A model generated the notes under the pieces. That model was not told the origin of the DNA, searched no databases, and worked only from the letters and a program-made list of their open reading frames with translations. Made by a program: the position numbers and the translations under genes. A DNA stretch of 64,000 nucleotides, taken from positions 896,880 to 960,879 of the forward strand of contig NZ_LWLE01000001.1 in assembly GCF_001905125.1 (NCBI RefSeq). Reading direction: 5' to 3'. Source of the DNA: Streptomyces sp. TSRI0281. GTDB lineage: Bacteria > Actinomycetota > Actinomycetes > Streptomycetales > Streptomycetaceae. Below are positions 3,201 to 48,386 of this stretch, in pieces. The stretch's first letter is position 1. Each line of letters opens with the position of its first letter.

Positions 3201-3215
3201 CTGACGAACCGTCAG
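3201..3215. promoter_or_regulatory. Regulon operator A (CTGACGAACCGTCAG)
   Basis: Perfect 6-base arms with a 3-base spacer. It lies 22 bases upstream of amidohydrolase A and 226 bases upstream of afsR on the other strand. It is one of eleven copies in this window of CTGAYG-N3-CGTCAG, consistent with a TetR-family repressor site. Confidence 0.75.
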
Positions 3216-3440
3216 CTATCTGTTCGCGATCGGCACCCGGCTCGGTTCCCGAATCGTTGTCGAGGGCTTGTGCAGAGCGTCACCCACTGCTGACGAGTCG
3301 GCCTAAAACAAGGCAGACTGTTGAGCGCGATACCAGCGGTACGGAGCAATCCGGATGCCCGTCATACATCGGCACACAGGCAGGCATTCCGACACAGGCA
3401 CCAGAGCAGGACCGGCAGGCGAGCAGGACTGGGGGCATCA

Positions 3441-6398
3441 ATGGACCGTCACCACGGGCCACGCGTGCGCGTGCCGGAGCAGCGCGCTCCGGATGAACCG
3501 GCGGCCGGTGCCGCGCTGCGGTTCGCCGTGCTCGGGCCCGTACGCGCCTGGCGCGGTGGCGAGCTGCTGCCCTCCGGTTCACCGCAGCAGCGGGCCCTGC
3601 TGACCGCGCTGCTCCTGCGCGACGGGCGGACGGCCACCGCGGCCGAACTCATCGACGCGATCTGGGGCGAGGAGCCGCCCCAGCAGGCGCTGGCGGCGGT
3701 ACGGACGTACGCCTCCCGGCTGCGCAAGGCGCTCGGCCAGGACACGCTGGTCAGCGAGTCCGGCGGCTATGCGATCCGGACCCGGCGGGAGGCGCTGGAC
3801 GTCAGCCTCGCGCAGGAACTGGCCACCGAGGCGGAGAAGGTCCGCGCGGGCGGCGACCGCTGCCAGGCCCGCACCCTGATCAACAAGGCGCTGAGCCTCT
3901 GGGACGGCGAGGCGCTCGCCTCCGTGCCCGGTCCGTACGCGGAGAACCAGCGCACCCGGCTGGAGGAATGGCGCCTCCAGCTCACCGAGACCCGGCTCGA
4001 CCTGGACCTGGAGGTCGGCTGCCACGCGGAGGCCGTCTCCGAACTGACCGCGCTCACCGCCACGCACCCGCTGCGCGAGCGGCTGCGCGGACTGCTGATG
4101 ATCGCCCTGTACCGCAGCGGCCGCCAGGCCGAGGCCCTCGCGGTGTACACGGACACCCGCCGGCTGCTCGCCGACGAACTGGGTGTCGATCCACGCCCCG
4201 AACTGGCCCAGCTCCAGCGGCGCATCCTCCAGGCCGACGAGGAACTGGCCCGCCCGGCCGACGAACCGGCCCCGGTGTCCGCCACGCTCCGCCCCGCCCA
4301 GCTCCCGGCCACCGTCCCCGACTTCACCGGCCGCACCTCCTTCGTCGCGGAGCTGGGGGCCCGGCTCGCGACCGCCGAGGGCTCGGTCATGGCGGTGTCC
4401 GCGCTGGCCGGTATCGGGGGCGTCGGCAAGACGACCCTCGCCGTCCACGTCGCCCACCAGGCCCGTCCGCACTTCCCGGACGGCCAGCTGTACGTCGACC
4501 TCCAGGGCGCCGGATCCCGCGCGGCGGAACCCGAGACGGTGCTCGGCTCGTTCCTGCGCGCGCTCGGCACCGCCGACTCCGCCATCCCGGACACGCTGGC
4601 CGAACGGGCCGCCCTGTACCGCTCGGCCCTGGACGGCCGGCGCATCCTGGTCCTCCTGGACAACGCCCATGACGCGGCGCAGATCCGCCCTCTGCTCCCC
4701 GGCACGGCGGGCTGCGCGGCGCTGGTCACCAGCCGGGTCCGGATGGTCGACCTGGCCGGTGCGCACCTGGTGGACCTCGATGTGATGTCCCCCGAGGAAG
4801 CCCTCCAGCTCTTCACCCGGATCGTCGGCGAGGAGCGGGTCGGCGCGGAGCGCGAGGCAGCCCTGGACGTGGTGGCCGCCTGCGGCTTCCTGCCCCTGGC
4901 CATCCGCATCGCCGCCTCCCGGCTGGCCGCCCGCCGCACCTGGACCGTCTCCGTGCTCGCCGCCAAGCTCGCCGACGAACGCCGCCGCCTGGACGAACTC
5001 CAGGCGGGCGACCTCGCGGTCAAGGCCACTTTCGAGCTCGGCTACGGCCAGCTGGAGCCCGCCCAGGCCCACGCCTTCCGCCTCCTCGGCCTCGCCGACG
5101 GCCCGGACATCTCGCTGGCCGCCGCCGCCGCCCTGCTGAACCTGGAGCCGCACGCGGCGGAGGACCTGCTGGAGGCGCTGGTCGACACGAGCCTGCTGGA
5201 GTCGGCGGCGCCGGGACGCTACCGCTTCCACGACCTCGTACGCCTCTACGCGCGTGCCTGCGCGGAGCGCGACGAACAGCCGCCGCAGGAGAGGGAGAGG
5301 GCGCTGTCACGGCTGCTGGACTTCTACCTCGCCACGGCGGCCGGGGTGTACGCGCTGGAGCGGCCCGAGGACCGGCTGGTCGACCATCTGGAGCCGACGG
5401 TTCACGCGGGACTCACCTTCGCCGGCCGCCACTCGGCGCTCGACTGGCTCTACGCGGAGGCGACCAATCTGCTCGCCTGTGTGTGCCAGGCGTCCCGCCC
5501 CGCGACACTCCGCCGCGCCGTCGATCTCCTCTACGCCGCCCTCGACCTGGGCGAGTCCGGCGCGAACGCGAAGCAGTACGAGGCGGCAGCGCTGACCGTT
5601 CGCGAGGCGGCCCGCGAGTGCGGCGATCCGCGGGCGGAGGGCCGCGCCGTGATGTCCCTGGCCAACGCGCACCAGCTGGCCGGGCGGTTCGACCACGCGG
5701 ACCGCGAGGCCCAGGAGGCGATGCGGCTCGCGGACGCGGTCCAGGACCTGCTGCCCGCCAGCTGGGCGGCCAACGCCCGGGGGATCATCGCGCTCTACCA
5801 GAACCGGCACGCGGACGGCGAGGAGTTCCTGAGCCAGGCCATCGCGGCGTTCCGCAGCGACGGGAACCGTCCGGGCGAGGCCAGTGCCCTGTGCAACCTG
5901 TCCCGGATACATCTGGCCACCGGCCGGACGAAGAGCGCCATCACGCTGGCCCGGTCGGGCATAGAGATCTACGACTCCCTCGGCCACGCGCTGCGCGGGG
6001 CGAACGGCCGCTACGCCCTGGGGATGGCGCTGACCCAGAGCGGACAGTTCGCCGCGGCGACCGCCCAGCTGACGGAGGCACTGGAGATCTTCCGCGACAG
6101 CCGTCAGCGGCTGTGGGAGGGCATGGCGATGTTCCGGCTGGCGGAGGTGGACATCGCGTCCGGCCGCCCCGCACAGGCCGCCCAGTACTCCGAACTCGCG
6201 CTGACCGTCCTGCGGGGCATCGGTGGCGAATGGCGGCGGGGAAACGTCCTGACCGTCCTCGGGCGCGCACTGTCCGGAATCGGGCAGACCGGCCGCGCCC
6301 AGGTCTGCTGGCACGAGGCGCTCACCATCTACGAGGAGCTCGGTTCGCCGGAGGCCGACGAGGTCCGGTCGCTGCTGGCGCCGGCCTCCGCGTCCTGA
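3441..6398 (+). CDS. afsR: AfsR, SARP-type global regulator with NB-ARC and TPR domains
   Basis: 985 aa cytoplasmic transcription factor, close to the 993 aa of S. coelicolor AfsR. An OmpR-like winged helix lies at about 28-115 (LRFAVLGPVRAW). The bacterial transcriptional activation domain follows at about 120-270. An NTPase domain carries the P-loop GIGGVGKTT at 324-332 and the Walker B-like RILVLLDNA. C-terminal TPR repeats run from about 650 to the end. Known role: phosphorylated by AfsK and other kinases, it activates afsS. ATG 3441 starts MDRHHGPRVRVPEQR, matching known AfsR N-termini. afsS follows immediately with an SARP/PhoP-type site between. The flanking operator A belongs to another regulon and probably serves the divergent amidohydrolase. 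Confidence 0.95.
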   Translation: MDRHHGPRVRVPEQRAPDEPAAGAALRFAVLGPVRAWRGGELLPSGSPQQRALLTALLLRDGRTATAAELIDAIWGEEPPQQALAAVRTYASRLRKALGQDTLVSESGGYAIRTRREALDVSLAQELATEAEKVRAGGDRCQARTLINKALSLWDGEALASVPGPYAENQRTRLEEWRLQLTETRLDLDLEVGCHAEAVSELTALTATHPLRERLRGLLMIALYRSGRQAEALAVYTDTRRLLADELGVDPRPELAQLQRRILQADEELARPADEPAPVSATLRPAQLPATVPDFTGRTSFVAELGARLATAEGSVMAVSALAGIGGVGKTTLAVHVAHQARPHFPDGQLYVDLQGAGSRAAEPETVLGSFLRALGTADSAIPDTLAERAALYRSALDGRRILVLLDNAHDAAQIRPLLPGTAGCAALVTSRVRMVDLAGAHLVDLDVMSPEEALQLFTRIVGEERVGAEREAALDVVAACGFLPLAIRIAASRLAARRTWTVSVLAAKLADERRRLDELQAGDLAVKATFELGYGQLEPAQAHAFRLLGLADGPDISLAAAAALLNLEPHAAEDLLEALVDTSLLESAAPGRYRFHDLVRLYARACAERDEQPPQERERALSRLLDFYLATAAGVYALERPEDRLVDHLEPTVHAGLTFAGRHSALDWLYAEATNLLACVCQASRPATLRRAVDLLYAALDLGESGANAKQYEAAALTVREAARECGDPRAEGRAVMSLANAHQLAGRFDHADREAQEAMRLADAVQDLLPASWAANARGIIALYQNRHADGEEFLSQAIAAFRSDGNRPGEASALCNLSRIHLATGRTKSAITLARSGIEIYDSLGHALRGANGRYALGMALTQSGQFAAATAQLTEALEIFRDSRQRLWEGMAMFRLAEVDIASGRPAQAAQYSELALTVLRGIGGEWRRGNVLTVLGRALSGIGQTGRAQVCWHEALTIYEELGSPEADEVRSLLAPASAS

Positions 6399-6410
6399 CA
6401 AACGCGGGCG

Positions 6411-6442
6411 TTCATCGTTCGTTTATCGCCGCCCGGCATTCT
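6411..6442 (+). promoter_or_regulatory. AfsR/PhoP direct-repeat box and afsS promoter
   Basis: Two heptamers, TTCATCG (6411-6417) and TTTATCG (6422-6428), repeat with an 11-base period just after afsR. CATTCT at 6437-6442 is a plausible -10, eight bases after the second heptamer, the spacing SARPs use. The same sequence reads as two 11-base PHO-box units (GTTCATCGTTC, GTTTATCGCCG). Competition between AfsR and PhoP at the afsS promoter is established in S. coelicolor; here it is inferred. Confidence 0.75.
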
Positions 6443-7684: not shown

Positions 7685-9244
7685 CTACTCGCCCCTCCCC
7701 CGCAGCTCTCCCTTCACCACTTTGCCGCCCGCGTTGCGCGGCAGCTCGGTCACGAACTCCACCGACCTGGGCACCTTGAAGTTCGCCATCTCGCGCCGTG
7801 ACCAGGCGATCAGGTCGTCCGCGGTCACCGTCGCCCCCGGCCGCCGTACCGCGTACGCCTTGCCGACCTCGCCCAGCCTCGGGTCCGGGACGCCGATCAC
7901 CGCCACATCGGCCACGTCCGGGTGGAGGCCCAGGAGCTGTTCTATCTCGGCCGGGTAGGCGTTGAAGCCGCCGACGATGAACATGTCCTTGATCCGGTCC
8001 GTGATCCGGAGGTTGCCCGCCTCGTCGAGCACGCCCACGTCGCCGGTGCGCAGCCAGCCGTCCGGGGTGAGCGCGGCGGCCGTGGTGTCCGGGTCCTCGA
8101 AGTAGCCGTGCATCACATGGAAGCCGCGCACCAGGACCTCGCCCGGCTCGCCGGGGCCGGCCAGCACGCGGATCTCCGTACCGGGGATCGCGCGGCCCGA
8201 GGTGGTGGCGATGACGTCCGCCGGGTCGCCCCGGCGGCACATCGTGACGATGCCGCTCGCCTCGGAGAGGCCGTACGCCGTGAGGACCGTGGAGATGTGC
8301 AGTTCGGTGCGCAAGCGTTCCACCAGCTGGAGGGGGACGACGGCCGCACCGGTCACCACCAGGCGCAGGGCGGAGAGGTCGTGCGCCGCGCGGGACGGGT
8401 GGTCCAGCAGGGACTGGTGCAGGGTGGGCGGGCCCGGCAGGACCGAGATGCGTTCGGCGGCGATGTTGGCCAGCACCGTGTCCACGTGGAACACCGGCTG
8501 CGGGACCATGGTCGCGCCCCGCATCAGACAGGCGATGATCCCCGCCTTGTAGCCGAAGGTGTGGAAGAACGGGTTCACGATCAGATAGCGGTCGCCCTCG
8601 CGCAGCCCCGCCAGGTCGCTCCAGATCGCGTAGCACCGCAGGGTCTGGGCGTGTGTGATCACCGCCCCCTTGGGGCTGCCCGTGGTGCCCGAGGTGTAGA
8701 CGATGTCGGAGGGGGCGGAGGGGGAGATCGCGTCGGCGCGGGACCGCACCTCCGCACCGGACACCCCCTCCCCCGCCGCCAGGAAGTCCTTCCATGTGAC
8801 GTAGTCGCGCGGGGCGCTGTCCGCGAGCACCACCACCGTCTCCAGGTGCGGGAGTTCGACGTCCGAGCGGCGCAGCGAGGCCACGTAGGACGTACCGAGG
8901 AACGTGCCCGTGACGAAGAGCAGTTTCGCGCGGCTCCGCCGCAGGATGTACGCCGCCTCCGTGCCCTTGAACCGGGTGTTCAGCGGGACCAGCACCGCTC
9001 CCGCCGTCACCGCCCCCAGCGCGGAGACGATCCAGTCCAGGGTGTTCGGGGCCCAGATCGCGACCCGGTCCCCCGGCTCCACGCCCGAGGCCATGCACGC
9101 GGCGGCGGCCCGCTCGACCCGCTCGCCGAGTCCGGTGTACGAGAGACGGGTGCGGCCCTCGACCACCGCCTCCAGATCGCCGTACCGTTCCGCCGCCGCC
9201 CGTACCAGCTTCGGGATGCTTCCCCACTCCTCGTCGCCGCGCAT
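7685..9244 (-). CDS. Acyl-CoA ligase (AMP-forming, FadD3-like)
   Basis: 519 aa adenylate-forming enzyme converting a carboxylic acid to its CoA thioester. The P-loop motif YTSGTTGSPKG is at 183-193. The AYGLSEASG and GWLRTGDVG motifs and a C-terminal lid ending in PRNAGGKVVKGEL carry the catalytic Lys. Overall it resembles the FadD3/medium-chain type more than fatty acyl-AMP ligases. It is divergent from the lipid-transfer thiolase operon, with a shared regulon operator 34 bases before its start. It probably activates the acid substrate of that pathway, which is unknown. Confidence 0.85.
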   Translation of the reverse strand: MRGDEEWGSIPKLVRAAAERYGDLEAVVEGRTRLSYTGLGERVERAAAACMASGVEPGDRVAIWAPNTLDWIVSALGAVTAGAVLVPLNTRFKGTEAAYILRRSRAKLLFVTGTFLGTSYVASLRRSDVELPHLETVVVLADSAPRDYVTWKDFLAAGEGVSGAEVRSRADAISPSAPSDIVYTSGTTGSPKGAVITHAQTLRCYAIWSDLAGLREGDRYLIVNPFFHTFGYKAGIIACLMRGATMVPQPVFHVDTVLANIAAERISVLPGPPTLHQSLLDHPSRAAHDLSALRLVVTGAAVVPLQLVERLRTELHISTVLTAYGLSEASGIVTMCRRGDPADVIATTSGRAIPGTEIRVLAGPGEPGEVLVRGFHVMHGYFEDPDTTAAALTPDGWLRTGDVGVLDEAGNLRITDRIKDMFIVGGFNAYPAEIEQLLGLHPDVADVAVIGVPDPRLGEVGKAYAVRRPGATVTADDLIAWSRREMANFKVPRSVEFVTELPRNAGGKVVKGELRGRGE

Positions 9245-9277: not shown

Positions 9278-9292
9278 CTGACTATCCGTCAG
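9278..9292. promoter_or_regulatory. Regulon operator B (CTGACTATCCGTCAG)
   Basis: Perfect 5-base arms; the sequence is identical to operator J at 48.37 kb. It lies between the divergent acyl-CoA ligase (34 bases away) and lipid-transfer thiolase (55 bases away), so it could repress both. CAGATT, a -10-like sequence for the thiolase, overlaps its right edge. Confidence 0.75.
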
Positions 9293-9347: not shown

Positions 9348-10496
9348 GTGGCGACGCTCAAAGACGTGACAGCGATAGCCGGCATCGGACAGACGGCCTT
9401 CGCGAAACAACTCCCCGAGTCCGAGAAGACCTTGGCCTGCCGGGCCATCGTCGCGGCCCTCGACGACGCGGGCATCGACGCCTCGGAGGTGGACGCCTTC
9501 GCCTCGTACACGATGGAGGAGACCGACGAGGTCGAGGTCGCCAAGGCCGTCGGGGCCGGCGATGTCACCTTCTTCTCCAAGGTGGGCTACGGGGGCGGGG
9601 GGTCCTGCGCGACCGTCGCGCATCTCGCCGCCGCCGTCGCCACCGGGCAGGCGAGCGTCGGGGTGGCCTGGCGGTCCCGGAAGCGGGGCTCGGGACCGAG
9701 GCCCTGGAAGAACACCGCCGTGCAGCTGCCCACCCCCGCCCAGTGGACCCGGCCGTACGGGCTGCTGCGGCCCGCCGACGAGATCGGCATGCTCGCCCGG
9801 CGGTACATGCACGAGTACGGGGCCACCCGCGACCATCTCTTCAACGTCGCGCTCGCCTGCCGCAACCGGGCCAACCAGAACCCGGACGCGATGATGTACG
9901 AACGCCCGCTGACCCGCGAGATGTATATGACCTCCCGCTGGATCAGCGACCCTCTCTGCCTCTTCGACAACTGCCTGGAGACCGACGGGGCGCTCGCCTG
10001 TGTCATCGTCTCCGCCGAACGCGCCCGCGACTGCCGGCAGAAGCCCGTCCTCATCCACTCCGTCGCCCAGGGCCTGCCCGCCCAGCACCACGGCATGGTC
10101 AACTACTGGAACGACGACCCGCTCACCGGCCCCGCCTGGACGGCGGCGCGACAGCTGTGGAAGCAGGCCGACTTCGGTCCGGACGACGTCGATGTCGCCC
10201 AGATCTACGACGCGTTCACCCCCCTCATCCCGCTCTCCCTGGAGGGCTACGGCTTCTGCGGGCGCGGCGAGGGCGCCGCGTTCACCGAGGGCGGGGCGCT
10301 GGAGAGCGGCGGCCGGCTGCCCGTCAACACCGGGGGCGGCGGGCTCAGCGAGGCGTACGTCCACGGCTTCAACCTCATCACCGAGGGCGTCAAACAGCTG
10401 CGCGGGACCTCCACCGCCCAGGTGCCGGACGCCGCCACCTGCCTGGTCACCGCGGGTGAGGGCGTGCCCACCTCCGCGGTTCTGCTGAGGAGTTGA
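9348..10496 (+). CDS. Thiolase-like lipid-transfer protein (Ltp), first copy
   Basis: 382 aa thiolase-fold protein of the sterol-carrier/lipid-transfer (SCP-x thiolase) class. It has the glycine-rich GGGGSCATVAHLAAAV, the class signature QIYDAFTPLIPLSLEGYGF and GGLSEAYVHG near the C-terminus. Proteins of this class paired with a DUF35 partner act as retro-aldolases in sterol side-chain catabolism (Ltp2 with ChsH2-type DUF35). A DUF35 gene follows one base after its stop, so a complex is likely. The GTG start has GGGAGG correctly placed. First gene of a three-gene operon behind operator B. Confidence 0.85.
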   Translation: MATLKDVTAIAGIGQTAFAKQLPESEKTLACRAIVAALDDAGIDASEVDAFASYTMEETDEVEVAKAVGAGDVTFFSKVGYGGGGSCATVAHLAAAVATGQASVGVAWRSRKRGSGPRPWKNTAVQLPTPAQWTRPYGLLRPADEIGMLARRYMHEYGATRDHLFNVALACRNRANQNPDAMMYERPLTREMYMTSRWISDPLCLFDNCLETDGALACVIVSAERARDCRQKPVLIHSVAQGLPAQHHGMVNYWNDDPLTGPAWTAARQLWKQADFGPDDVDVAQIYDAFTPLIPLSLEGYGFCGRGEGAAFTEGGALESGGRLPVNTGGGGLSEAYVHGFNLITEGVKQLRGTSTAQVPDAATCLVTAGEGVPTSAVLLRS

Positions 10497-10497
10497 G

Positions 10498-10950
10498 ATG
10501 CCGACACCGGATTCCCCCCTTCTGCTGCCCGTCGTCGACGAGGACGGGGCACCGTTCTGGGAGTACGCCGCCGCCGGTGAACTCCGCGTCCAGTCCTGCG
10601 CCGCCCCCGGCTGCGGCGAACTCCGCTTCCCGCCCCGGCCCTGCTGCCCGCACTGCCAGTCCTTCGACAGCGAGTGGCGGGCGATGAGCGGGCGCGGCCG
10701 CATCTGGTCGTTCGTGCTGCCGCATCCGCCCCTGCTGCCCGCGTACGCCGAACAGGCCCCGTACAACGCGGTCGTCGTGGAGCTTTCCGACGCCCCGCAC
10801 ATCCGGCTGGTCGGAAACGTGGTCGCCGGGCCCGACGCGCGACTGGACTCGGTCGATCCGGGGCGGCTGCGGATCGGGGCGGCGGTCCGGGCGGTCTTCT
10901 GCCCGGTCACGCCGGACGTGACCATGGTCCGCTGGCTGCTGGAGCGCTGA
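10498..10950 (+). CDS. DUF35 zinc-ribbon/OB-fold partner protein
   Basis: 150 aa. A zinc ribbon uses C34, C39, C50 and C53 (CAAPGC, then CCPHC), followed by an OB-fold half containing GRIWSFV and YNAVVVEL. DUF35 proteins are obligate partners of thiolase-like aldolases or synthases and bind the acyl-CoA. It follows the lipid-transfer gene with one base between stop and start. The pairing is family knowledge plus adjacency; the reaction is inferred. Confidence 0.85.
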   Translation: MPTPDSPLLLPVVDEDGAPFWEYAAAGELRVQSCAAPGCGELRFPPRPCCPHCQSFDSEWRAMSGRGRIWSFVLPHPPLLPAYAEQAPYNAVVVELSDAPHIRLVGNVVAGPDARLDSVDPGRLRIGAAVRAVFCPVTPDVTMVRWLLER

Positions 10951-10953
10951 GCG

Positions 10954-11742
10954 ATGGCGCTGCGCACCGAGACGGACAAGGGGAGCAAAGTCGCCGTCGT
11001 CACCCTGGACCGGCCCACGAGGCTCAACGCCATCGACCTGGCCACCGCCGGTGAACTGGCCGCCACCTGGAGGGCGTTCCGCTTCGACGAGGAGGTGCGT
11101 GCCGTCGTCGTGACCGGAGCGGGCGGGCGCGCCTTCTGCACCGGGATCGACCGGGGGGCCGAGGTCCCGCAGCCCCCGTCCCCGTACACGATCGACGATC
11201 CGCTGCTGGCGATCGGGCCCAAGGCGAACGACCTGTGGAAGCCGGTGATCGCGGCCGTCGAGGGGATGGCCTGCGGCGGGGCGTTCTATCTGCTGGGCGA
11301 GGCCGAGTTCGTCATCGCGTCCGAGGACGCGACGTTCTTCGACCCGCACACGACGTACGGCATGGTCAGCGCGTACGAGGCGATCTCCATGGCCCAGCGG
11401 ATGCCGTTCGGGGAGGTGGCCCGGATGTCCCTGATGGGCACGGCCGAACGGGTGACGGCCCGCCGGGCGTACGAGACCGGCCTGGTCAGCGAGGTCACCG
11501 CGCCCGGCGGCGCGCTGGCGGCCGCGGTACGTGCGGCCACCACGATCGCCTCGTACCCGACGGCCGCCGTCCAGGGCACCGTACGGGCTGTGTGGTCCGC
11601 GAAGGAGGCGGCCCGCGCCCAGGCCATGGCGCATGCCCCGCATCTCATCGCGCTCGGCAATCTGGCGCCGGAGCGGCAGGCCGAGCTGTTCGAGGGACGG
11701 AGCAGGGGCGGGGACGGGGGCGGGGCTCCCCGGTTGCGGTGA
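10954..11742 (+). CDS. Enoyl-CoA hydratase/isomerase-family protein
   Basis: 262 aa crotonase-fold protein. LDRPTRLNAID gives the CoA-binding start. The oxyanion-hole segments are FCTGIDRG and GMACGGAFYLLG. The usual second catalytic Glu region (FFDPHTTYGMVSAYEA) lacks the canonical E-x7-GLxPD pattern, so it may be an isomerase, hydrolase or other crotonase rather than a classical hydratase. Three bases separate it from the DUF35 gene, making it the last gene of the Ltp-DUF35 operon. Confidence 0.8.
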   Translation: MALRTETDKGSKVAVVTLDRPTRLNAIDLATAGELAATWRAFRFDEEVRAVVVTGAGGRAFCTGIDRGAEVPQPPSPYTIDDPLLAIGPKANDLWKPVIAAVEGMACGGAFYLLGEAEFVIASEDATFFDPHTTYGMVSAYEAISMAQRMPFGEVARMSLMGTAERVTARRAYETGLVSEVTAPGGALAAAVRAATTIASYPTAAVQGTVRAVWSAKEAARAQAMAHAPHLIALGNLAPERQAELFEGRSRGGDGGGAPRLR

Positions 11743-17124: not shown

Positions 17125-17139
17125 CTGACGGCATGACAG
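17125..17139. promoter_or_regulatory. Weak regulon-operator match overlapping the TetR start
   Basis: CTGACGGCATGACAG matches the regulon palindrome at 10 of its 12 conserved positions: the left arm is perfect and the right arm has two mismatches. It covers the ATG of the TetR gene. A TAAGCT -10-like element precedes it, suggesting a nearly leaderless message. It could be an autoregulatory site; chance matches of this quality are expected a few times per 64 kb, so position is the main support. Confidence 0.4.
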
Positions 17140-18007: not shown

Positions 18008-18122
18008 CGCCCGGCCTCACCGAACTCCCGGCGTCAGCGCACGCCCGGTCTCACCGAAGCCCCGGCGTCACCGCACACCCGGCCTCACCGAAGCCCCGGC
18101 CTCACCGCACACCCGGCCTCAC
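18008..18122. repeat. 34-bp tandem repeat, 3.4 copies, ending in a stop codon
   Basis: Units 18008-18041, 18042-18075 and 18076-18109 plus a 13-base partial are 85-95% alike (theme CACCCGGCCTCACCGAAGCC). Units abut directly without spacers. The final partial unit contains the stop codon of the nitroreductase gene on the other strand. Confidence 0.8.
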
Positions 18123-19895: not shown

Positions 19896-19910
19896 CTGAC
19901 GATGCGTCAT
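19896..19910. promoter_or_regulatory. Regulon operator C (CTGACGATGCGTCAT)
   Basis: 11 of 12 conserved positions match. It lies 39 bases before the acyl-CoA dehydrogenase start, in a divergent gap that also holds operator D for the thiolase. Confidence 0.68.
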
Positions 19911-20046: not shown

Positions 20047-20050
20047 ATTC

Positions 20051-34139: not shown

Positions 34140-34154
34140 CTGATGATTCGTCAG
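34140..34154. promoter_or_regulatory. Regulon operator G (CTGATGATTCGTCAG)
   Basis: 11 of 12 conserved positions match. It ends 16 bases before the flavin reductase ATG and directly follows the enoyl-CoA hydratase stop. Confidence 0.7.
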
Positions 34155-34170
34155 CTCTAATGGAGGTGTG

Positions 34171-40487: not shown

Positions 40488-41626
40488 CTCGGCTCCCTCG
40501 GTAGGCCGAGCACCCGCTCGGCGATGATGTTCCGCTGGATCTCGTCCGAGCCGCCGTAGATGGTGTCGGACCTGGTGAAGAGGAACAGGCGCTGTGCCTC
40601 GTCGAGTTCGTACGGGCTCCGCTCGGACCATGCGGCCGGCCCGACGGCCCCCGCCGGACCCTTGATCCGTACGGCCAGCTCGCCGAGCCGCTGGTGCCAG
40701 CCGCCCCACAGGAGCTTGGCCACGCTGGGGGCGCCGGGGTCGCCCGTCGTACCGAGGGTGCGCAGCGCGTTCCAGCGCATGGTCCGCAGCTCCGCCCACT
40801 GCCGCACCAGCCGCTCCCGCACGACCGGGTCGGTGACGGCGCCGCTGTCGACGGCGGCGCGCACCACCCGCTCCAGTTCGGCGGCGAACCCGATCTGCTG
40901 GACGAGCGTGGACACCCCGCGCTCCAGGGCCAGCAGCCCCATGGCGACGGTCCAGCCGTTGCCCTCGCCGCCCACCACCTCCTCGGCGCGCGCCCCGTCG
41001 AAGAAGACCTCGTTGAACTCGCTGGTCCCCGACATCTGGCGGATCGGCCGCACCTCGACGCGGCCCGGCTGATCCATCTCGACCAGCAGGAACGACAGCC
41101 CGTGGTGGCGGGACGATCCGGGCTCGGTGCGGGCCAGCACGAAGCACCAGTCGGCGTCCCGCGCGAGTGACGTCCAGATCTTCTGCCCGGTCACGGCATA
41201 GCCGCCCGCCCCCTCCCGTACGGCGGCCGTGCGCACCGAGGCGAGGTCGGAACCGGCGCCCGGTTCGCTGTACCCCTGGCACCACAGCGTCTCGCCGCGT
41301 GCGACGCCGGGCAGGAAGCGCCGCCGCTGCTCCTCGGTGCCGTACGCGATCAGGGTCGGGGCGAGGAGGTTCTCGCCGATATGGCCGACGCGGGCGGGGG
41401 CGGCGGACGCGGCGTACTCCTCGGCCCAGAGCACCTGCTGGGCCGGGCTCGCGCTCCGGTTGCCGTAGCCGGGGGCCGGGGTCTCCCAGCCGAGGCCGAT
41501 CCAGCCGTCGCGGCCGAGGGTGCGTTCCCAGGCGCGGGGGGTGGTGGCGGTGGGGAGGTTGGCCTCCAGCCAGCCGCGGGCCTGTGCGCGGAACGCCTCG
41601 TCCTCGGGCCCGAAACGGAAGTCCAT
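40484..41626 (-). CDS. Acyl-CoA dehydrogenase (catalytic-type subunit)
   Basis: 380 aa. The FAD/substrate motif WCQGYSEPGAGSDLASVRT, the TGQKIWTS strand and C-terminal IYGGSDEIQRNIIAERVLGLP are present. The MCAD-position Glu (YEGT) is Gly here, but ALERG in helix G supplies the Glu used in isovaleryl- and mycobacterial FadE-type enzymes. I infer it is the active half of a heteromer whose other half may be the 18.6-kb enzyme. It is the second gene of the operon, separated from the SDR by a 69-base-unit repeat. Confidence 0.87.
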   Translation of the reverse strand: MDFRFGPEDEAFRAQARGWLEANLPTATTPRAWERTLGRDGWIGLGWETPAPGYGNRSASPAQQVLWAEEYAASAAPARVGHIGENLLAPTLIAYGTEEQRRRFLPGVARGETLWCQGYSEPGAGSDLASVRTAAVREGAGGYAVTGQKIWTSLARDADWCFVLARTEPGSSRHHGLSFLLVEMDQPGRVEVRPIRQMSGTSEFNEVFFDGARAEEVVGGEGNGWTVAMGLLALERGVSTLVQQIGFAAELERVVRAAVDSGAVTDPVVRERLVRQWAELRTMRWNALRTLGTTGDPGAPSVAKLLWGGWHQRLGELAVRIKGPAGAVGPAAWSERSPYELDEAQRLFLFTRSDTIYGGSDEIQRNIIAERVLGLPREPR

Positions 41627-41657
41627 GCGTGCCTCCTGCTTCTCTCCTGGGGCTCCG

Positions 41658-41795
41658 CCCCACGGGCGGATCGGGCGTCGGGCCGGGTGCGGCCCCTGGA
41701 GCGGTCAGGCGTCGGGCCGGGTACGGCCCCACGGGCGGGTCGGGCGTCGGACCGGGTGCGGCCCCTGGTGCGGTCAGGCGTTGGGCCGGGTGCCC
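41658..41795. repeat. 69-bp tandem duplication between SDR and ACAD genes
   Basis: Two copies (41658-41726 and 41727-41795), each made of two related 33-36-base halves sharing GCGTCGGGCCGGGT. It lies inside the operon and includes the SDR stop codon, so the last SDR residues (GTRPNA) are repeat-encoded. Confidence 0.8.
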
Positions 41796-42688
41796 GCCCT
41801 GGCCGCCGCCGCCATCTCCTCCAGCCGCGCCAGCATCGGCATCGGGTCCACCCCCACCGTCCCCGGCAGGAAGTCGGCGATCTTCTCGGGGGTCCAGGCC
41901 CCGTCCGCGTACCCCGCGCGCAGCTCCCTCGGCTGGGCCCAGACCGCGATCTTCGGGCCCGCGATCGTGTACACCTGACCGGTGATCCGTTCGGCGCGGG
42001 CCCGTTCGCTCAGCAGGTACACGACGAGCGCCGCCACGTCCTCCGGCTCCCCGATCTCCGCCAGTTCCATCGGCACGTTGGCGGACATCCGGGTTCGGGC
42101 CACCGGGGCGACGGCGTTCGCCGTGACGCCGTACTTGTGCAGGCCGAGCGCCGCGCTGCGGACGAGCGAGATGATCCCGCCCTTGGCGGCGCTGTAGTTG
42201 GCCTGGGCCACGCTGCCCTGGTGGTTGCCGCTGGTGAAGCCGATCAGCGTGCCGCCGCCCTCCTGCTTGCGCATCACCGCGGACGCGGCGCGGAACACCG
42301 TGAAGGTGCCCTTGAGATGGGTGGCGAGAACCGGGTCCCACTCCTCCTCGGACATGTTGAACAGCATCCGCTCGCGCAGGATCCCGGCGACGCACACGAC
42401 TCCGTCGATCCGCCCGAACCGGTCGAGCGCCGTGTCCACGATCCGCTGCCCGCCCGCCATCGTGGAGATGTCGTCGGCGACCGCGACCGCCTCCCCGCCC
42501 GCCGCCTCGATCTCCTTGACGACGGACCGCGCGACGTCGCTGCTCGGCTCGCCGCCCTCGATGGAGACGCCGTAGTCGTTGACGACGACCCGCGCCCCCT
42601 CGGCGGCGGCGGCGCGTGCGACCGCCCGCCCGATGCCCCGGCCGGCCCCCGTGACGGCGACCACCTTGCCTGCCAAGAAGTTCCCCAT
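41774..42688 (-). CDS. Short-chain dehydrogenase (MFE-2/FabG-like)
   Basis: 304 aa. The nucleotide loop TGAGRGIG is at 13-20; N-A-G-like CVAGIL, and the catalytic Y165/K169 pair (YSAAK) is intact. The NDYG segment and length resemble the dehydrogenase part of peroxisomal-type multifunctional enzyme 2, which oxidises 3-hydroxyacyl-CoA. First gene of the SDR-ACAD-ADH operon, with operator H 23 bases upstream. Confidence 0.87.
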   Translation of the reverse strand: MGNFLAGKVVAVTGAGRGIGRAVARAAAAEGARVVVNDYGVSIEGGEPSSDVARSVVKEIEAAGGEAVAVADDISTMAGGQRIVDTALDRFGRIDGVVCVAGILRERMLFNMSEEEWDPVLATHLKGTFTVFRAASAVMRKQEGGGTLIGFTSGNHQGSVAQANYSAAKGGIISLVRSAALGLHKYGVTANAVAPVARTRMSANVPMELAEIGEPEDVAALVVYLLSERARAERITGQVYTIAGPKIAVWAQPRELRAGYADGAWTPEKIADFLPGTVGVDPMPMLARLEEMAAAARAGTRPNA

Positions 42689-42710: not shown

Positions 42711-42725
42711 CTGACGGACCGTTAG
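42711..42725. promoter_or_regulatory. Regulon operator H (CTGACGGACCGTTAG)
   Basis: 11 of 12 conserved positions match. It lies between the divergent SDR (23 bases) and cyclase (48 bases) genes. Its right edge forms TAGATT (42723-42728), an excellent -10 for the cyclase gene, so binding would block polymerase. Confidence 0.72.
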
Positions 42726-42772
42726 ATTTTATGGGTAGTCGGATGCTCCGGCACAAGACCCAGGAGGCCCCC

Positions 42773-43699
42773 ATGTCCCTGCCGGCCGAGTTCCACGAGA
42801 TCGCCAAGCGCGTCAACAACTGGGGCCGCTGGGGCGCGGACGACGAAACCGGCACGCTCAACCTGATCACCGACACGGTCGTACGGGAGGCCGCCGCCAC
42901 CGTCCGCACCGGCCGCCGGATACCGCTCGCGCTGCCGCTCCAGCAGGACGGCGTACAGAGCGGGCTGATCCCGGGACGGGTCAATCCCCTCCACACCATG
43001 GTCCAGATCAACCAGGAACTCTTCGGCCCCGGCACGGTCGCCACCAGCGACGACGCCGTCACGATGGGACTCCAGGCGGCCACCCACTGGGACGCGCTCA
43101 CCCATGCCTCGCACAGCGGGAAGATCTACAACGGCCGCCCCGCCGCCACCGTCACCGCCCACGGCGGCGCGGAGTTCAGCTCGATCGCCGCCGTGCCGCA
43201 CCTCGTCTCGCGCGGGGTCCTGCTGGACGTGGCCCGCGCCCGGGGCGTCGACCGGCTGCCGGGCGACCACGCCGTCACCCCGGAGGACCTGGACGCGGCG
43301 GAGGATTTCGCGGGCCTGCGGGTCCGGGCCGGAGACATCGTGCTCGTACGGACCGGGCAGGTGCAGATCTGTCTGGCGGGCGACAAGCACGGCTACGGCT
43401 ATCCGTCACCCGGCCTCTCGGTGCGGACACCCGAGTGGTTCCACGCACGCGACGTGGCCGCGGTCGCCAACGACACCCTCACGTTCGAGATCTTCCCGCC
43501 GGAGATCGAGGACCTGTGGCTGCCGGTGCACGCGCTCCATCTGGTCGAGATGGGCATGCTCCAGGGCCAGAACTGGAACCTCGAAGGTCTCTCCACCGCC
43601 TGTGCGGAGGAGCGGCGCCACGCCTTCCTGCTCTCGGCGATGCCGGAGCCCTTCGTCGGGGCCACCGGCACCCCGGTCGCCCCGGTCGCCATCCTGTGA
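42773..43699 (+). CDS. Cyclase-family hydrolase (kynurenine formamidase-like)
   Basis: 308 aa. The metal motif reads ATHWDALTHASH, the equivalent of HxGTHxDxPxH. Later LVRTGQ and HALHLVEMGM...NWNLEGLS are family features. Members hydrolyse amides, lactones or strained C-C/C-N bonds, so it might open a ring intermediate. AGGAGG at 42762-42767 sets ATG 42773. It is the only non-CoA hydrolase of the regulon apart from the amidohydrolases. Confidence 0.83.
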   Translation: MSLPAEFHEIAKRVNNWGRWGADDETGTLNLITDTVVREAAATVRTGRRIPLALPLQQDGVQSGLIPGRVNPLHTMVQINQELFGPGTVATSDDAVTMGLQAATHWDALTHASHSGKIYNGRPAATVTAHGGAEFSSIAAVPHLVSRGVLLDVARARGVDRLPGDHAVTPEDLDAAEDFAGLRVRAGDIVLVRTGQVQICLAGDKHGYGYPSPGLSVRTPEWFHARDVAAVANDTLTFEIFPPEIEDLWLPVHALHLVEMGMLQGQNWNLEGLSTACAEERRHAFLLSAMPEPFVGATGTPVAPVAIL

Positions 43700-44889: not shown

Positions 44890-45873
44890 CTACACATGTA
44901 TCGCCGGGTCCCGGTCCCGCTGCCCGCCGCCGCCCAGATCGGCCGCCAGAATCTCCTCCGAGGCCGCCGCCGTGAGCCACCGTGCCGAACGCACCCAGGC
45001 CCGTTTCAGGTGGAGGTGAACATCTGCTTCCCAGGTGAAGCCCATACCGCCGTGTATCTGGAGACAGTCCCGCGCATTGCCGACGGCGGCCTCGTCGGCG
45101 AGCAGTTTGGCGCCCGCGATCTCCGCGGGGTCGCCCGTCACAGCCGCCGCGTACACGGCGCAACGCGCCGGTTCGAGCCGGGCCACCATCTCGGCGCAAA
45201 GATGTTTGACCGCCTGGAACGACCCGATCGGGGTACCGAACTGCTCACGCCCACGGGCGTGTTGGACGGCCATTTCCAGGGTGCGGGCGGCACTTCCGAG
45301 CTGTTCGGCGGCGGTCAGCACCGCTCCCTCGCCACGCAGCCGCGCCGCGTCGCCGGGCAGCGGCTCCCCCTGTCCGGCCAGGTCCGTCAACCGGTGGAGC
45401 GGGGTGAACGGATCGAGCGAACGTACGGGGCGGGCCCCGCGCACCACGGCGCGCAACGGCTCCCCGGTCAGCACCCGCACGCCCTCCCCCAGGACGAGCA
45501 CCGCGTCGGCGTCCGCCAGGTCCGCCACCGGACCGTCGCCGTCCGCCGCGGTCACCGCGGTCCGCCCCTCCGCGGCCCCCTCCACCGCACCGGCGGCGAG
45601 GTGGGTGGCCACCAGCGGTCCGGGCAGCAGCACCCGCCCCGCTTCCTCGAAGAGCAGCACGGCCTCGGGCAGCCCGAGGCCCACCCCGCCGCTGTCCTCC
45701 GGCAGCCGCAGCGCGAAGAACCCGGCCGCGCCGAGCTCCCCCCACAGGCCCCGGCCGGGGCCCTCGCCCCGGTCCAGGGCGGCCCGCATCCGGTCCCTGC
45801 CGAAGCGCCCTGCGAGCAGGTCGCGCACCCCTGCCCGCAGCGCCCGCTGATCCTCCGAGAGCTGGAAGTCCAC
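44890..45873 (-). CDS. Acyl-CoA dehydrogenase (short, non-catalytic-type subunit)
   Basis: 327 aa, short for the family. REQFGTPIGSFQAVKH and QIHGGMGFTWEADVHLHLKRAW match the 18.6-kb enzyme and mark the non-ERG subunit of heteromeric ACADs. The central beta-domain is shortened. GTG 45873 (VDFQLSEDQRAL) starts eight bases after the previous ACAD stop, so the two subunits are cotranscribed with amidohydrolase B. Confidence 0.85.
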   Translation of the reverse strand: MDFQLSEDQRALRAGVRDLLAGRFGRDRMRAALDRGEGPGRGLWGELGAAGFFALRLPEDSGGVGLGLPEAVLLFEEAGRVLLPGPLVATHLAAGAVEGAAEGRTAVTAADGDGPVADLADADAVLVLGEGVRVLTGEPLRAVVRGARPVRSLDPFTPLHRLTDLAGQGEPLPGDAARLRGEGAVLTAAEQLGSAARTLEMAVQHARGREQFGTPIGSFQAVKHLCAEMVARLEPARCAVYAAAVTGDPAEIAGAKLLADEAAVGNARDCLQIHGGMGFTWEADVHLHLKRAWVRSARWLTAAASEEILAADLGGGGQRDRDPAIHV

Positions 45874-45880
45874 AGTCCGC

Positions 45881-47035
45881 TCAGCGCCCCTTCGGCAGGC
45901 CGAGCATCCGCTCGGCGACGATGTTCCGCTGGATCTGCGAGGTGCCCGCGGCGATCGTGTACGAGAGGGAGGACAGCCGGTCCAGGACCCACTCCCGGTC
46001 CAGATCGAGGCTGTCCGCGCCGAGCACCTCGGCCGCCGCCGCGTACAGCTCCTGGCGGGCCTGCGAGTAGCGCAGCTTGAAGACCGACCCGCCGGTGCCG
46101 GGGACGCCGCCGCTGCGCTGGGCCTCGCTGACGTTCCACTGGGTGAGCCGCCACAGCGCCCGGAATTCCGCGTTCAGCCTGCCGAGCCGGCGGCGCAGCA
46201 CCGGGTCGTCCCAGCGGCCGTTCGCCCGTGCGGCCGCCGCCAGTTCACCGAGGGTGCGACGGCAGGCGACGACCTCGCCGACGAAGGCCGTACCGCGTTC
46301 GAAGGAGAGGGTGACCATGGTGACCCGCCAGCCGTCGTTCTCCGCGCCGACGCGGTGGGAGACCGGCACCCGGACCTCGTCGAGGAACATCTCGGCGAAC
46401 TCCGTGGATCCGGCGAGGGTGCGCAGCGGGCGGACGGTGACCCCGGGTGCGTCCATCGGCAGGGCGAGCCAGCTGATGCCGCGGTGTTTCGGCGCCTCCG
46501 GGTCCGTACGCACGAGCAGTTCGCACCAGTCGGCGACCTCGGCGTGCGAGGTCCAGATCTTCTGTCCGCTCACCACGTAGTGGTCGCCGTCCCGTACGGC
46601 CCGGGTGCGCAGCGCGGCCAGGTCGGAGCCCGCGTCCGGTTCGCTGAACCCCTGGCACCAGATCTCGTCGCCGCGCAGGACGGGCGGCAGCCAGCGGGCC
46701 CGCTGACCGGCCGTGCCCTCGGCGGCGATGGTGGGCCCGGCGTGCAGCAGCCCGACGAAGTTGGCGCCGACGTACGGGGCACCGGCCCGCTCGGTCTCCT
46801 CCAGGTAGATCAGGTGCTGGGTGGGGGTGGCGCCCCGGCCGCCCGCGTCGAGCGGCCAGTGCAGACCGGCGTACCCGGCGTCGTGGAGCATCCGCTGCCA
46901 GGCGGTGTCGTACGCGCGGCGGGCGGGCCAGTCGTCGGGCGGGGGCTTCGCGGGCAGCCCGGGGAGCACCGAGGCGAGCCACTTCCGCAGCCGCGCCCGG
47001 AACTCCTCCTCTTCCTCCGTGTACGTGAGATCCAC
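45881..47035 (-). CDS. Acyl-CoA dehydrogenase (catalytic-type subunit)
   Basis: 384 aa. WCQGFSEPDAGSDLAALRT, VSGQKIWTSHAE and SQIQRNIVAERMLGLP are typical. The MCAD-position Glu is replaced (TIAAGTSQIQ) while SFERG in helix G keeps the alternative catalytic Glu. Its neighbour supplies the complementary subunit, resembling the heterotetrameric FadE/ChsE pairs of sterol side-chain degradation. GTG 47035 (VDLTYTEEEEEF) follows amidohydrolase B by 11 bases. Confidence 0.87.
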   Translation of the reverse strand: MDLTYTEEEEEFRARLRKWLASVLPGLPAKPPPDDWPARRAYDTAWQRMLHDAGYAGLHWPLDAGGRGATPTQHLIYLEETERAGAPYVGANFVGLLHAGPTIAAEGTAGQRARWLPPVLRGDEIWCQGFSEPDAGSDLAALRTRAVRDGDHYVVSGQKIWTSHAEVADWCELLVRTDPEAPKHRGISWLALPMDAPGVTVRPLRTLAGSTEFAEMFLDEVRVPVSHRVGAENDGWRVTMVTLSFERGTAFVGEVVACRRTLGELAAAARANGRWDDPVLRRRLGRLNAEFRALWRLTQWNVSEAQRSGGVPGTGGSVFKLRYSQARQELYAAAAEVLGADSLDLDREWVLDRLSSLSYTIAAGTSQIQRNIVAERMLGLPKGR

Positions 47036-47046
47036 GGCGCGGCCGC

Positions 47047-48252
47047 CTACGCGACCCGGTCCCGGTCGAGATCCAGACCGAGCATCCGGATCGCGTTTCC
47101 GCGCATCAGTTTGTAGACGGTCTCCTCGTCCAGTCCCTTGACGTGGTCGAGGGCGACCTCCTTGGTGTGGGGGAAGGTCGAGTCGACGTGCGGGTAGTCG
47201 GTCTCGAAGGTGGCGTTGTCGCGGCCGACGACGTCGAGGGACGCGATCCCGTGCTTGTCGCGGAAGAAGCAGCAGAAGATCTGCCGGTAGTAGTACGTGG
47301 ACGGCGGCTCGGGGATCAGGTCGCGCACCCCGCCCCAGGCGCGGTGCTCCTGCCACACGTCGTCGGCGCGCTCCAGCGCGTACGGGATCCAGCCCATCTG
47401 GCCCTCGCTGTAGGCCAGCTTGAGGCGCGGGTGCTTCACCAGGACCCCGCTGAACAGGAAGTCCATCATCGAGGCCATGGCGTTGTTGAAGGAGAGCGAC
47501 GCCTGGACGGCGGGCGGGGCGTCGGGGGAGGCCGCGGGCATCTGCGAGCTGGACCCGATGTGCATGTTCACGACCGTTCCGGTCTCCTGGCAGACCGCGA
47601 AGAACGGGTCCCAGTACCCGGTGTGGATCGACGGCAGACCGAGGTGGGTGGGGATCTCGGAGAAGGTCACCGCCCGCACCCCCCTGGCGGCGTTGCGCCT
47701 GATCTCCGCGACGGCCAGGTCGATGTCCCAGAGCGGGATGATGCAGAGGGGGATCAGCCGGCCGCCGCTGTCGCCGCACCACTCCTCGACCATCCAGTCG
47801 TTGTAGGCGCGCACACAGGCGAGGGCGACCTCCTTGTCGTGGGCCTCGGCGAAGGTCTGGCCGCAGAAGCGCGGGAAGGTGGGGAAGCAGAGGGACGCCT
47901 CGACGTGGTTGAGGTCCATGTCCTTGAGGCGTTCGGCCGGGTCCCAGCAGCCGGGCCGCATCTCCGAGCGGGTGATGCCCTCCAGGGTCATGTCGTCGCG
48001 GTCGAAGCCGACGGCGGCGATGTTGCGCTTGTACGGGAACTTCAGGTCCTCGTAGATCCACCAGTCGGTGGGCGGTCCGTCGGGGTCCATCGTGATGACG
48101 TACTTGCCTCCCGTGTACGCCAGCTCGCCGATGCCCGCCGTGAGCGGCTGCGGGCCGCGCTCGCGGTACTTGGCGGGCAGCCAGGTGGAGAAGAGGTGCG
48201 GTGGCTCGATCACATGGTCGTCGACGCTGACGATCCGAGGCAGTTCCGTCAT
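47047..48252 (-). CDS. Amidohydrolase (COG2159/ACMSD-like), paralogue B
   Basis: 401 aa. D11/H13 in SVDDH, NMHIGSSSQ with the metal His, and ETDYPHVDS with the catalytic Asp. It shares WWIYEDL, CFPTFPRFCGQTF and RAYNDWMVEEWCG with paralogue A near afsR, so the two arose by duplication. First gene of the operon with two acyl-CoA dehydrogenases. Operator I lies 31 bases upstream. Confidence 0.87.
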   Translation of the reverse strand: MTELPRIVSVDDHVIEPPHLFSTWLPAKYRERGPQPLTAGIGELAYTGGKYVITMDPDGPPTDWWIYEDLKFPYKRNIAAVGFDRDDMTLEGITRSEMRPGCWDPAERLKDMDLNHVEASLCFPTFPRFCGQTFAEAHDKEVALACVRAYNDWMVEEWCGDSGGRLIPLCIIPLWDIDLAVAEIRRNAARGVRAVTFSEIPTHLGLPSIHTGYWDPFFAVCQETGTVVNMHIGSSSQMPAASPDAPPAVQASLSFNNAMASMMDFLFSGVLVKHPRLKLAYSEGQMGWIPYALERADDVWQEHRAWGGVRDLIPEPPSTYYYRQIFCCFFRDKHGIASLDVVGRDNATFETDYPHVDSTFPHTKEVALDHVKGLDEETVYKLMRGNAIRMLGLDLDRDRVA

Positions 48253-48282
48253 GGTGTCCCCTTCGGCGCGCTCGGCCAATAT

Positions 48283-48297
48283 CTGATGACCCGTCAG
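48283..48297. promoter_or_regulatory. Regulon operator I (CTGATGACCCGTCAG)
   Basis: 11 of 12 conserved positions match, extended by TCTGA/TCAGAT. On the minus strand it overlaps CAGATA, a -10-like sequence of amidohydrolase B. Confidence 0.7.
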
Positions 48298-48371
48298 ATT
48301 TACTTCGGCACCCAGGCTAGCCCCGCACCCCTGGACCGACAAGGCGCAGCGCTCTACGCTCTCCGCACTAT

Positions 48372-48386
48372 CTGACTATCCGTCAG
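48372..48386. promoter_or_regulatory. Regulon operator J (CTGACTATCCGTCAG)
   Basis: Perfect 5-base arms, identical to operator B. It ends 16 bases before the acyl-CoA ligase GTG and is 89 bases from operator I, so the divergent operons each have their own site. Confidence 0.75.

What the first reader, a model, noticed from the sequence alone, without database searches (positions are those of the whole stretch)
3201..48386. Scattered CoA-catabolism regulon marked by eleven CTGAYG-N3-CGTCAG operators
Seen: the 15-base palindrome occurs at 3201, 9278, 19896, 20032, 26257, 30769, 30793, 34140, 42711, 48283 and 48372, each matching at least 11 of the 12 conserved positions (some right arms CAT or TTAG). 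All lie in promoter gaps, 5-71 bases before a start codon, and almost all drive genes for CoA-thioester catabolism: two amidohydrolases, two acyl-CoA ligases, two lipid-transfer thiolases, DUF35 proteins, four acyl-CoA dehydrogenases, SDR, zinc ADH, cyclase, NDP-forming synthetase, flavin reductase. Unrelated genes in the window (afsR, afsK, htpX, purU, sigma, ABC) have none at their own starts. Inference: about twelve transcription units form one TetR-type regulon broken up along 45 kb. I do not recognise the site as that of KstR, KstR2 or another described regulator.
Basis: partly seen in the sequence, partly recalled or inferred. Interest (0 to 1): 0.93.

Follow-up and report, generated by a model that had tools for sequence, protein, structure and literature searches.

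The report
A TetR switch for steroid-type catabolism
In this Streptomyces-type genome, eleven copies of a palindromic DNA site stand in front of scattered gene groups whose proteins resemble enzymes that break down steroid-like molecules, and an orphan repressor protein encoded among them, whose relatives across the phylum tend to accompany the same site, is likely the single switch that controls them all.

Summary
All 11 sites exist as stated, are intergenic, and far exceed chance (shuffles: mean 0.94, maximum 4). They are conserved: around the TetR in 20 genomes of the genus, 168 of 171 orthologous first genes keep a site with at most one mismatch upstream, against 0 of 192 other genes. The operator is longer than reported: A-n-CTGACG-n3-CGTCAG-n-T.

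The likely regulator is the TetR at 17133-17780 (TetR_C_38; in the position of SCO4421 beside afsK; function unknown). Outside its own family its homologue and the site co-occur in Actinomycetota, and 11 of 24 homologue loci carry a site just upstream.

Targets match steroid-type side-chain enzymes (Ltp2-ChsH2, FadE, FadD3). Elsewhere in the genome an exact site lies between cyp125 and a steroid thiolase gene. The regulator is not KstR2: this genome has a KstR2 homologue near an ipd operon lacking the site. In G280 and family f81, though, a site does lie beside the ipd genes.

Binding, direction of control and ligand are untested. Two genomes with 169 and 276 sites have most sampled sites away from promoters, which I cannot explain.

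The parts
3201..3215 (.). operator CTGACGAACCGTCAG; amidohydrolase (-) and afsR (+) diverge around it
   Evidence: site kept in 13 of 13 amidohydrolase and 10 of 14 afsR orthologues
1959..3179 (-). Amidohydro_2 protein, unit 1
9278..9292 (.). operator CTGACTATCCGTCAG between divergent units 2 and 3; the mismatch itself recurs in several relatives
   Evidence: 17 of 19 and 19 of 19
7685..9244 (-). FadD3-family acyl-CoA ligase (unit 2)
   Evidence: NF005801 825 bits, cut-off 657
9348..11742 (+). Ltp-type thiolase, DUF35/ChsH2 and enoyl-CoA hydratase (unit 3)
17133..17780 (+). TetR regulator P0001 (TetR_C_38), proposed repressor
17125..17139 (.). degenerate operator CTGACGGCATGACAG (10 of 12 positions) overlapping the tetR start codon
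   Evidence: CTGACG and ATGACAG kept in 35 of 35 family loci checked; function inferred
19896..19910 (.). operator CTGACGATGCGTCAT before unit 4
   Evidence: 18 of 18
18119..19857 (-). acyl-CoA dehydrogenase and F420H2_quin_red protein (unit 4)
20032..20046 (.). operator CTGATGTACCGTCAG before unit 5
   Evidence: 19 of 19
20051..21232 (+). Ltp2-type thiolase/aldolase (unit 5)
   Evidence: 4u4e 3.7e-98, 6ok1 1.4e-46
26257..26271 (.). operator CTGACGGTACGTCAG between units 6 and 7
   Evidence: 14 of 14 for 25780-26232; 5 of 16 within 200 bases for 26390
25370..26232 (-). 150-aa protein without Pfam match, then ChsH2/DUF35 protein (unit 6)
26390..27550 (+). FMO-like flavoprotein (unit 7), 118 bases from the site
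30769..30783 (.). operator CTGACGGGGCGTCAG, first of a tandem pair
30793..30807 (.). operator CTGACAAGGCGTCAG, second of a tandem pair
   Evidence: 18 of 18 for 30866
29756..30766 (-). NmrA/NAD-binding protein (unit 8)
30866..33106 (+). NDP-forming acyl-CoA synthetase (unit 9)
34140..34154 (.). operator CTGATGATTCGTCAG before unit 10
   Evidence: 15 of 16
34168..34788 (+). flavin reductase (unit 10)
42711..42725 (.). operator CTGACGGACCGTTAG between divergent units 11 and 12; the mismatch recurs in relatives
   Evidence: 10 of 10 and 10 of 10
39438..42688 (-). SDR, acyl-CoA dehydrogenase and zinc ADH (unit 11)
42743..43699 (+). putative cyclase (unit 12)
48283..48297 (.). operator CTGATGACCCGTCAG before unit 13
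   Evidence: 13 of 13, partly the same genes as for 1959-3179
44890..48252 (-). DitZ-like amidohydrolase and two acyl-CoA dehydrogenases (unit 13)
48372..48386 (.). operator CTGACTATCCGTCAG before unit 14
   Evidence: 2 of 2
48403..50007 (+). acyl-CoA ligase (unit 14)

Best explanation
Eleven palindromic sites stand in the promoter gaps of about fourteen transcription units for acyl-CoA catabolism, and the TetR protein encoded at 17133-17780 is likely the repressor that binds them and would release them when a bulky cyclic CoA thioester accumulates. A TetR dimer would sit on the 19-base palindrome A-n-CTGACG-n3-CGTCAG-n-T, mostly 2 to 58 bases before the start codons, and block transcription. 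An intermediate of the pathway, probably a steroid- or terpenoid-derived acyl-CoA, would fill the ligand pocket and lift repression of all units together, including units elsewhere in the genome such as cyp125 with a steroid thiolase and clusters of LLM oxidoreductases and SDRs. Shown here: the sites, their conservation, the gene families, and the co-occurrence of site and TetR. Inferred: the unit borders, binding, repression rather than activation, and the ligand class.
For: Sites: 11 against a shuffle mean of 0.94, 11 of 11 intergenic. Conservation: 168 of 171 orthologous first genes keep a site, 0 of 192 other genes (sums). Flanking A/T at -2/+2: 19 of 22 in the window, 4 of 34 around sites of site-poor genomes, base rate 13.7%. 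Regulator: TetR_C_38 occurs once in this genome. Outside the own family, in the class sample 16 of 21 genomes with a strong TetR homologue (E up to 1e-20) have 5 or more exact sites against 8 of 160 without (p 4e-13); 11 of 16 against 8 of 160 when family f80 is left out (p 3e-9). Outside the class: 7 of 10 against 3 of 260 (p 7e-10). 11 of 24 distant TetR loci have a site within 110 bases upstream of the TetR gene; of the 40 non-Streptomyces loci among 80 from the named-organism search, 8 have one within 200 bases, about 1.1 expected. In two Actinomadura records the TetR is followed by sites, an NDP-forming synthetase, sites and an amidohydrolase. The stretch T51, S52, A54-F60 around the helix at 53-59 is invariant in 25 sequences. 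Targets: Ltp2 and ChsH2 of 6ok1, FadE type, CYP125, steroid 3-ketoacyl-CoA thiolase equivalog 688 bits. In 16 genomes of the own genus, the 11 with IpdA have 19-29 exact sites and the 5 without have 3-18.
Against: No binding or expression data. The TetR is present in 150 of 150 genomes of the own family, including nine with 1-6 exact sites, of which the 17 I looked at (of 34) seem to be background. None of 20 Streptomyces TetR promoters has a site with at most one mismatch, only the 10-of-12 degenerate one. Exceptions to co-occurrence: five genomes have the TetR and 0-4 sites (G455 none), eight have 5-11 sites without a strong homologue. Thirteen of 24 distant TetR loci have no site close upstream. 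Of 30 IpdA loci only 8 have a nearby site; those of four other TetR-bearing genomes (G483, G519, G527, G543) and of this genome have none. Around own-genome sites outside the window flanking A/T is only 11 of 30. In G134 (169 sites) and G507 (276 sites) most sampled sites are not at promoters, so raw counts are not pure operator counts.
Confidence: 0.75

Rival explanations
1. The regulon is real but another TetR-type or different protein of the genome binds the sites; the TetR at 17.1 kb is only a conserved neighbour.
For: The TetR is kept in small-genome Streptomyces that have almost no sites, and its own promoter in the genus lacks a good site.
Against: Site-TetR co-occurrence in two samples outside the family, sites directly upstream of many distant TetR homologues, and TetR lying inside site-bearing gene clusters in G280, G495 and Actinomadura. 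G113, with 1 exact site, still keeps the TetR near the FMO-like gene with a one-mismatch site.
Confidence: 0.14
2. The TetR activates, or acts in both directions, rather than simply repressing; it would link acyl-CoA turnover to afsR and sporulation.
For: One site sits in the afsR upstream region of this genome and of 10 of 14 relatives; SCO4421 shows lower expression in a whiA mutant and is active in spores (PMC3878966 passages).
Against: Sites lie mostly 2-58 bases before start codons, where a bound dimer would block polymerase; most TetR proteins repress (general knowledge).
Confidence: 0.1
3. The palindrome is not an operator but a hairpin, terminator or repeat element that happens to lie between genes.
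For: In G134 and G507 many sampled copies lie inside genes or away from starts.
Against: In the window and relatives the copies sit before first genes, the three-base centre varies while the arms are kept, and operon-internal genes have almost none.
Confidence: 0.03

Closest known systems
KstR regulon (steroid side chain and A/B rings, TetR repressor, mycobacteria/Rhodococcus)
   Same: Works alike: one TetR, many scattered operators; targets include cyp125, steroid thiolase, Ltp2-ChsH2-type and FadE-type genes.
   Different: The regulator belongs to another subfamily (TetR_C_38). The KstR match is only E 0.09 over residues 17-73. The KstR operator is known to me from memory only and does not resemble this site.
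KstR2 regulon (HIP, C/D rings)
   Same: In G280 and family f81 the ipd/echA20 genes lie beside this site, with a P0001-type TetR close by.
   Different: This genome has a separate KstR2 homologue (4w97, E 6e-56, TetR_C_24) near ipdC-ipdB-ipdA-echA20, and no such site there.
EthR (M. tuberculosis)
   Different: 17-20% identity; sequence match limited to about residues 15-86; EthR's operator is of another kind (recalled).
SCO4421 of S. coelicolor
   Same: TetR gene close to afsK, as here; probably the orthologue, by position only.
   Different: Known from the one paper found only as a developmentally regulated, spore-expressed TetR without mutant phenotype (PMC3878966 passages); those passages report no operator or regulon.

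Membership tests
TetR/AcrR family regulator | TetR_N helix-turn-helix domain and all-helical ligand domain | tested here: met
TetR/AcrR family regulator | dimer binding to a palindromic operator, relieved by a ligand | not testable with these tools
   palindrome present; binding and ligand not assayed
KstR2 regulon | regulator is KstR2 (TetR_C_24) | tested here: not met
   P0001 is TetR_C_38; a KstR2 homologue was found elsewhere in the genome; no entry named KstR2 among the 52 PDB matches of P0001 up to E 0.1
KstR2 regulon | ipdABC and echA20 under the operator | tested here: not met
   own genome: no site with at most one mismatch in L215/L312. Elsewhere: exact site beside the echA20-like gene start in G280, G447, G525, G533; 8 of 30 IpdA loci with a site in the 3.7 kb fetched, 7 of 7 in f81
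KstR regulon | side-chain genes cyp125 and fadA5 under the operator | tested here: met
   exact site between the CYP125-type P450 and the steroid thiolase gene; that it acts on both is inferred
KstR regulon | regulator is a KstR orthologue | tested here: inconclusive
   5cw8 KstR matches P0001 only at E 0.09; no phylogeny built; whether this genome also has KstR was not searched

The most novel reading that the evidence does not exclude
One TetR-operator pair, older than the split of the classes of Actinomycetota, is the master switch for steroid- and terpenoid-type CoA catabolism outside the mycobacterial group, doing there the work of KstR and, in some lineages, of KstR2 as well; in Streptomyces it is wired to sporulation through WhiA and to antibiotic control through the shared afsR promoter.
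Probability: 0.38. Interest if true: 0.78.

Novelty: new member of a known kind. Interest (0 to 1): 0.62.

Why it matters
It gives a testable function and operator to a conserved but orphan Streptomyces regulator: 150 of 150 sampled family genomes carry it, yet the one paper found on its S. coelicolor counterpart saw no deletion phenotype. It groups a large set of unassigned enzymes (amidohydrolases, LLM oxidoreductases, SDRs, acyl-CoA dehydrogenase pairs) as one pathway family, and suggests how steroid-type catabolism is controlled where KstR and KstR2 do not reach. The operator can be used to find further pathway genes in other Actinomycetota.

Tried and rejected
Presence or absence of the TetR within the own family does not discriminate, because all 150 sampled genomes have it. 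Nine site-poor genomes were inspected for a core target: 17 of their 34 exact sites were fetched and looked like background. Two high-count genomes were sampled expecting a giant regulon. In G134, 18 of 45 exact sites lie near a start (random positions 75 of 400); in G507, 3 of 22 (random 73 of 400). So high counts are not read as regulon size. Many G134 in-gene copies lie in one codon phase, several in large, apparently modular synthase genes.

The reversed-pattern control is not codon-matched, so I rely on conservation and flanks rather than on raw counts. KstR2 as regulator was rejected. PDB search with the 150-aa protein 25780-26232 gave nothing. No NCBIfam match for P0001 at E 1e-10.

In the conservation sum four rows were left out as ambiguous: afsR 3441 (10 of 14), DUF35 25370, operon-internal (3 of 18), FMO 26390 (5 of 16), NmrA 29756 (1 of 1); four other genes had no orthologue. 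The 192 include operon-internal genes and the TetR itself (0 of 20). Divergent promoters are counted for both genes and the two amidohydrolases partly share orthologues, so the 171 cells are not independent. One of the 20 genomes is site-poor G113.

Literature, as listings of the held library: SCO4421 (1 paper), motif letters with TetR and regulon (20 of 973 shown), TetR_C_38/PF19352 (none), KstR2 with Streptomyces (20 of 186 shown), Acidimicrobi- with steroid terms (20 of 27 shown), gene content. None of the titles and abstracts shown reports this operator; this is weak evidence of absence. SAV3818, a TetR said to stimulate antibiotic production, was seen only in citing passages; that it may be the orthologue is recalled and untested.
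Full report
Observation. CTGAYGNNNCRTCAG with at most one mismatch occurs 11 times in the window; 100 dinucleotide shuffles gave a mean of 0.94 and a maximum of 4. With two mismatches the window is closer to chance (21 against 13.5), so the tight form carries the signal. All 11 are intergenic and the nearest start codon is 2 to 38 bases away. In the whole 9.6 Mb genome there are 21 exact sites, 6 of them in this window, against 1 for the reversed control.

Conservation. I fetched 40 kb around the TetR from 20 genomes of the genus and looked for sites within 200 bases upstream of orthologues of the window genes. First genes of site-bearing units kept a site in 168 of 171 cases. Other genes, among them the afsK-like kinase (17), PNPOx (19), an AraC-type regulator (12), the TetR (20) and operon-internal genes, kept one in 0 of 192 (sums). 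Four ambiguous rows were left out and are listed under Tried and rejected. Even sites with a fixed mismatch, such as CTGACTATCCGTCAG and CTGACGGACCGTTAG, recur in relatives. 160 intergenic sites from 19 genomes show an extended operator with A two bases before and T two bases after the arms (78%). At this position the window has 19 of 22, four distant genomes 30 of 42 intergenic flanks, own-genome sites outside the window 11 of 30, and sites of site-poor genomes 4 of 34, the base rate being 13.7%.

Regulator. The TetR at 17133-17780 carries TetR_C_38, is the only such protein found in the genome, and lies between site-bearing units. Within the own family it is present in 150 of 150 sampled genomes, so there it cannot be tested by presence. 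Outside the family it can. In 181 other genomes of the class, 16 of 21 with a strong homologue have at least five exact sites, against 8 of 160 without (p 4e-13). Without family f80 it is 11 of 16 against 8 of 160. In 270 genomes outside the class it is 7 of 10 against 3 of 260. In family f81 genomes with the TetR have 6-15 sites and four without have 0-2; one incomplete genome, G559, has 11 sites and no strong homologue. Of 24 distant TetR loci, 11 have a site within 110 bases upstream of the TetR gene; one of the 11 is in site-rich G507. Of the 40 non-Streptomyces loci among the 80 from the named-organism search, 8 have one within 200 bases, where about 1.1 is expected. In two Actinomadura records the TetR is followed by sites, an NDP-forming acyl-CoA synthetase, more sites and an amidohydrolase, gene kinds that the window also has. 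In Aquihabitans sp. G128 sites precede amidohydrolase genes, and a one-mismatch site precedes the TetR. In the own family the TetR start codon lies inside a degenerate operator, CTGACGGCATGACAG, whose arms are kept in 35 of 35 loci checked; that this is autoregulation is an inference.

Pathway. PDB matches by sequence: the thiolase 20051-21232 and the DUF35 protein 25370-25783 match the two chains of Ltp2-ChsH2, 6ok1. The dehydrogenase 45881-47035 matches Tcur3483 (6wy9) and 4x28, which I recall as the FadE26/27 type. The amidohydrolase 47047-48252 matches DitZ and PtmU3; I recall these as belonging to diterpenoid pathways. The ligase 7685-9244 passes the NCBIfam FadD3 model. Elsewhere in the genome an exact site separates a CYP125-type P450 from a steroid 3-ketoacyl-CoA thiolase (688 bits, cut-off 515); further sites precede LLM luciferase-like oxidoreductases and SDRs. 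Of the 15 exact sites outside the window, 7 are of this sort and 8 are not. Among 16 genomes of the genus, the 11 with an IpdA homologue have 19-29 sites and the 5 without have 3-18. I therefore read the substrate class as steroid- or terpenoid-like CoA thioesters. A comparative study found the cholesterol pathway in only 1 of more than 50 Streptomyces (PMC4810484, passages), so cholesterol itself need not be the substrate.

Relation to KstR and KstR2. The genome also has ipdC-ipdB-ipdA-echA20 (L312), with a KstR2 homologue nearby (4w97, E 6e-56), and no site there. The new TetR is thus not KstR2 and covers other genes. In G280 (outside the class) the IpdA-type protein (6co6, E 2e-67), IpdB- and IpdC-like proteins, an EchA20-like hydratase and the P0001-type TetR all lie within site-bearing DNA; the names IpdB, IpdC and EchA20 rest on gene order and likeness, not on a family match. 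In family f81, 7 of 7 IpdA loci hold a site, 4 of them with one mismatch; of all 30 IpdA loci 8 do, and TetR-bearing G483, G519, G527 and G543 are among the 22 that do not. Among 40 named loci none has an IpdA- or EchA20-like gene within the stretch held. So the same TetR-operator pair appears to cover different parts of the pathway in different lineages, but how widely it covers ipd genes is open.

What does not fit. G134 and G507 carry 169 and 276 exact sites; of those sampled most are not at promoters, and flanking A/T is 24 of 90 and 22 of 44. I have no explanation. Site-poor Streptomyces keep the TetR. G113 retains it near the FMO-like gene with a one-mismatch site, which suggests, but does not show, a shrunken regulon.

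Known work. SCO4421, close to afsK, has lower expression in a whiA mutant, is active in spores and has no deletion phenotype (PMC3878966, passages). Identity with P0001 rests on position: the window has a Pkinase-PQQ protein at 13409-15799 and an AfsR-type protein at 3441-6398. The predicted fold is closest to EthR.

Noticed in passing
G507 (family f80) and G134: 276 and 169 exact copies of the palindrome; of 22 and 45 sampled, most lie inside genes or away from starts. Five f80 genomes have 171-276 with control 0-1. Possibly a chromosome-wide binding site or other element.
   Followed up: partly
window 3201-3441: The afsR upstream region shares an operator with the divergent amidohydrolase gene; 10 of 14 relatives show it within 200 bases of afsR, a possible link to antibiotic control.
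   Followed up: partly
window 17125-17139: The tetR start codon lies inside a degenerate operator, and about 50 bases upstream are nearly identical in most of 32 family loci shown: possibly a leaderless promoter with autoregulation.
   Followed up: partly
L312 10573-18669 and L215 (own genome contig C33): A KstR2 homologue near ipdC-ipdB-ipdA-echA20, with another palindrome-like stretch (ACCAAACATTTGTTAGGT) before echA20.
   Followed up: partly
L093 (G198): TetR homologue with one in-frame stop in a genome with a single exact site: regulator and regulon may be lost together.
   Followed up: no
window 1959-3179 and 47047-48252: Amidohydrolases of PF04909; the second matches PtmU3 and DitZ. PF04909 includes dinuclear monooxygenases (PMC10811679 passages), so these may be oxygenases rather than hydrolases.
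   Followed up: no
window 25780-26232: Well conserved 150-aa protein directly behind an operator with no Pfam, NCBIfam or PDB match at the thresholds used.
   Followed up: no
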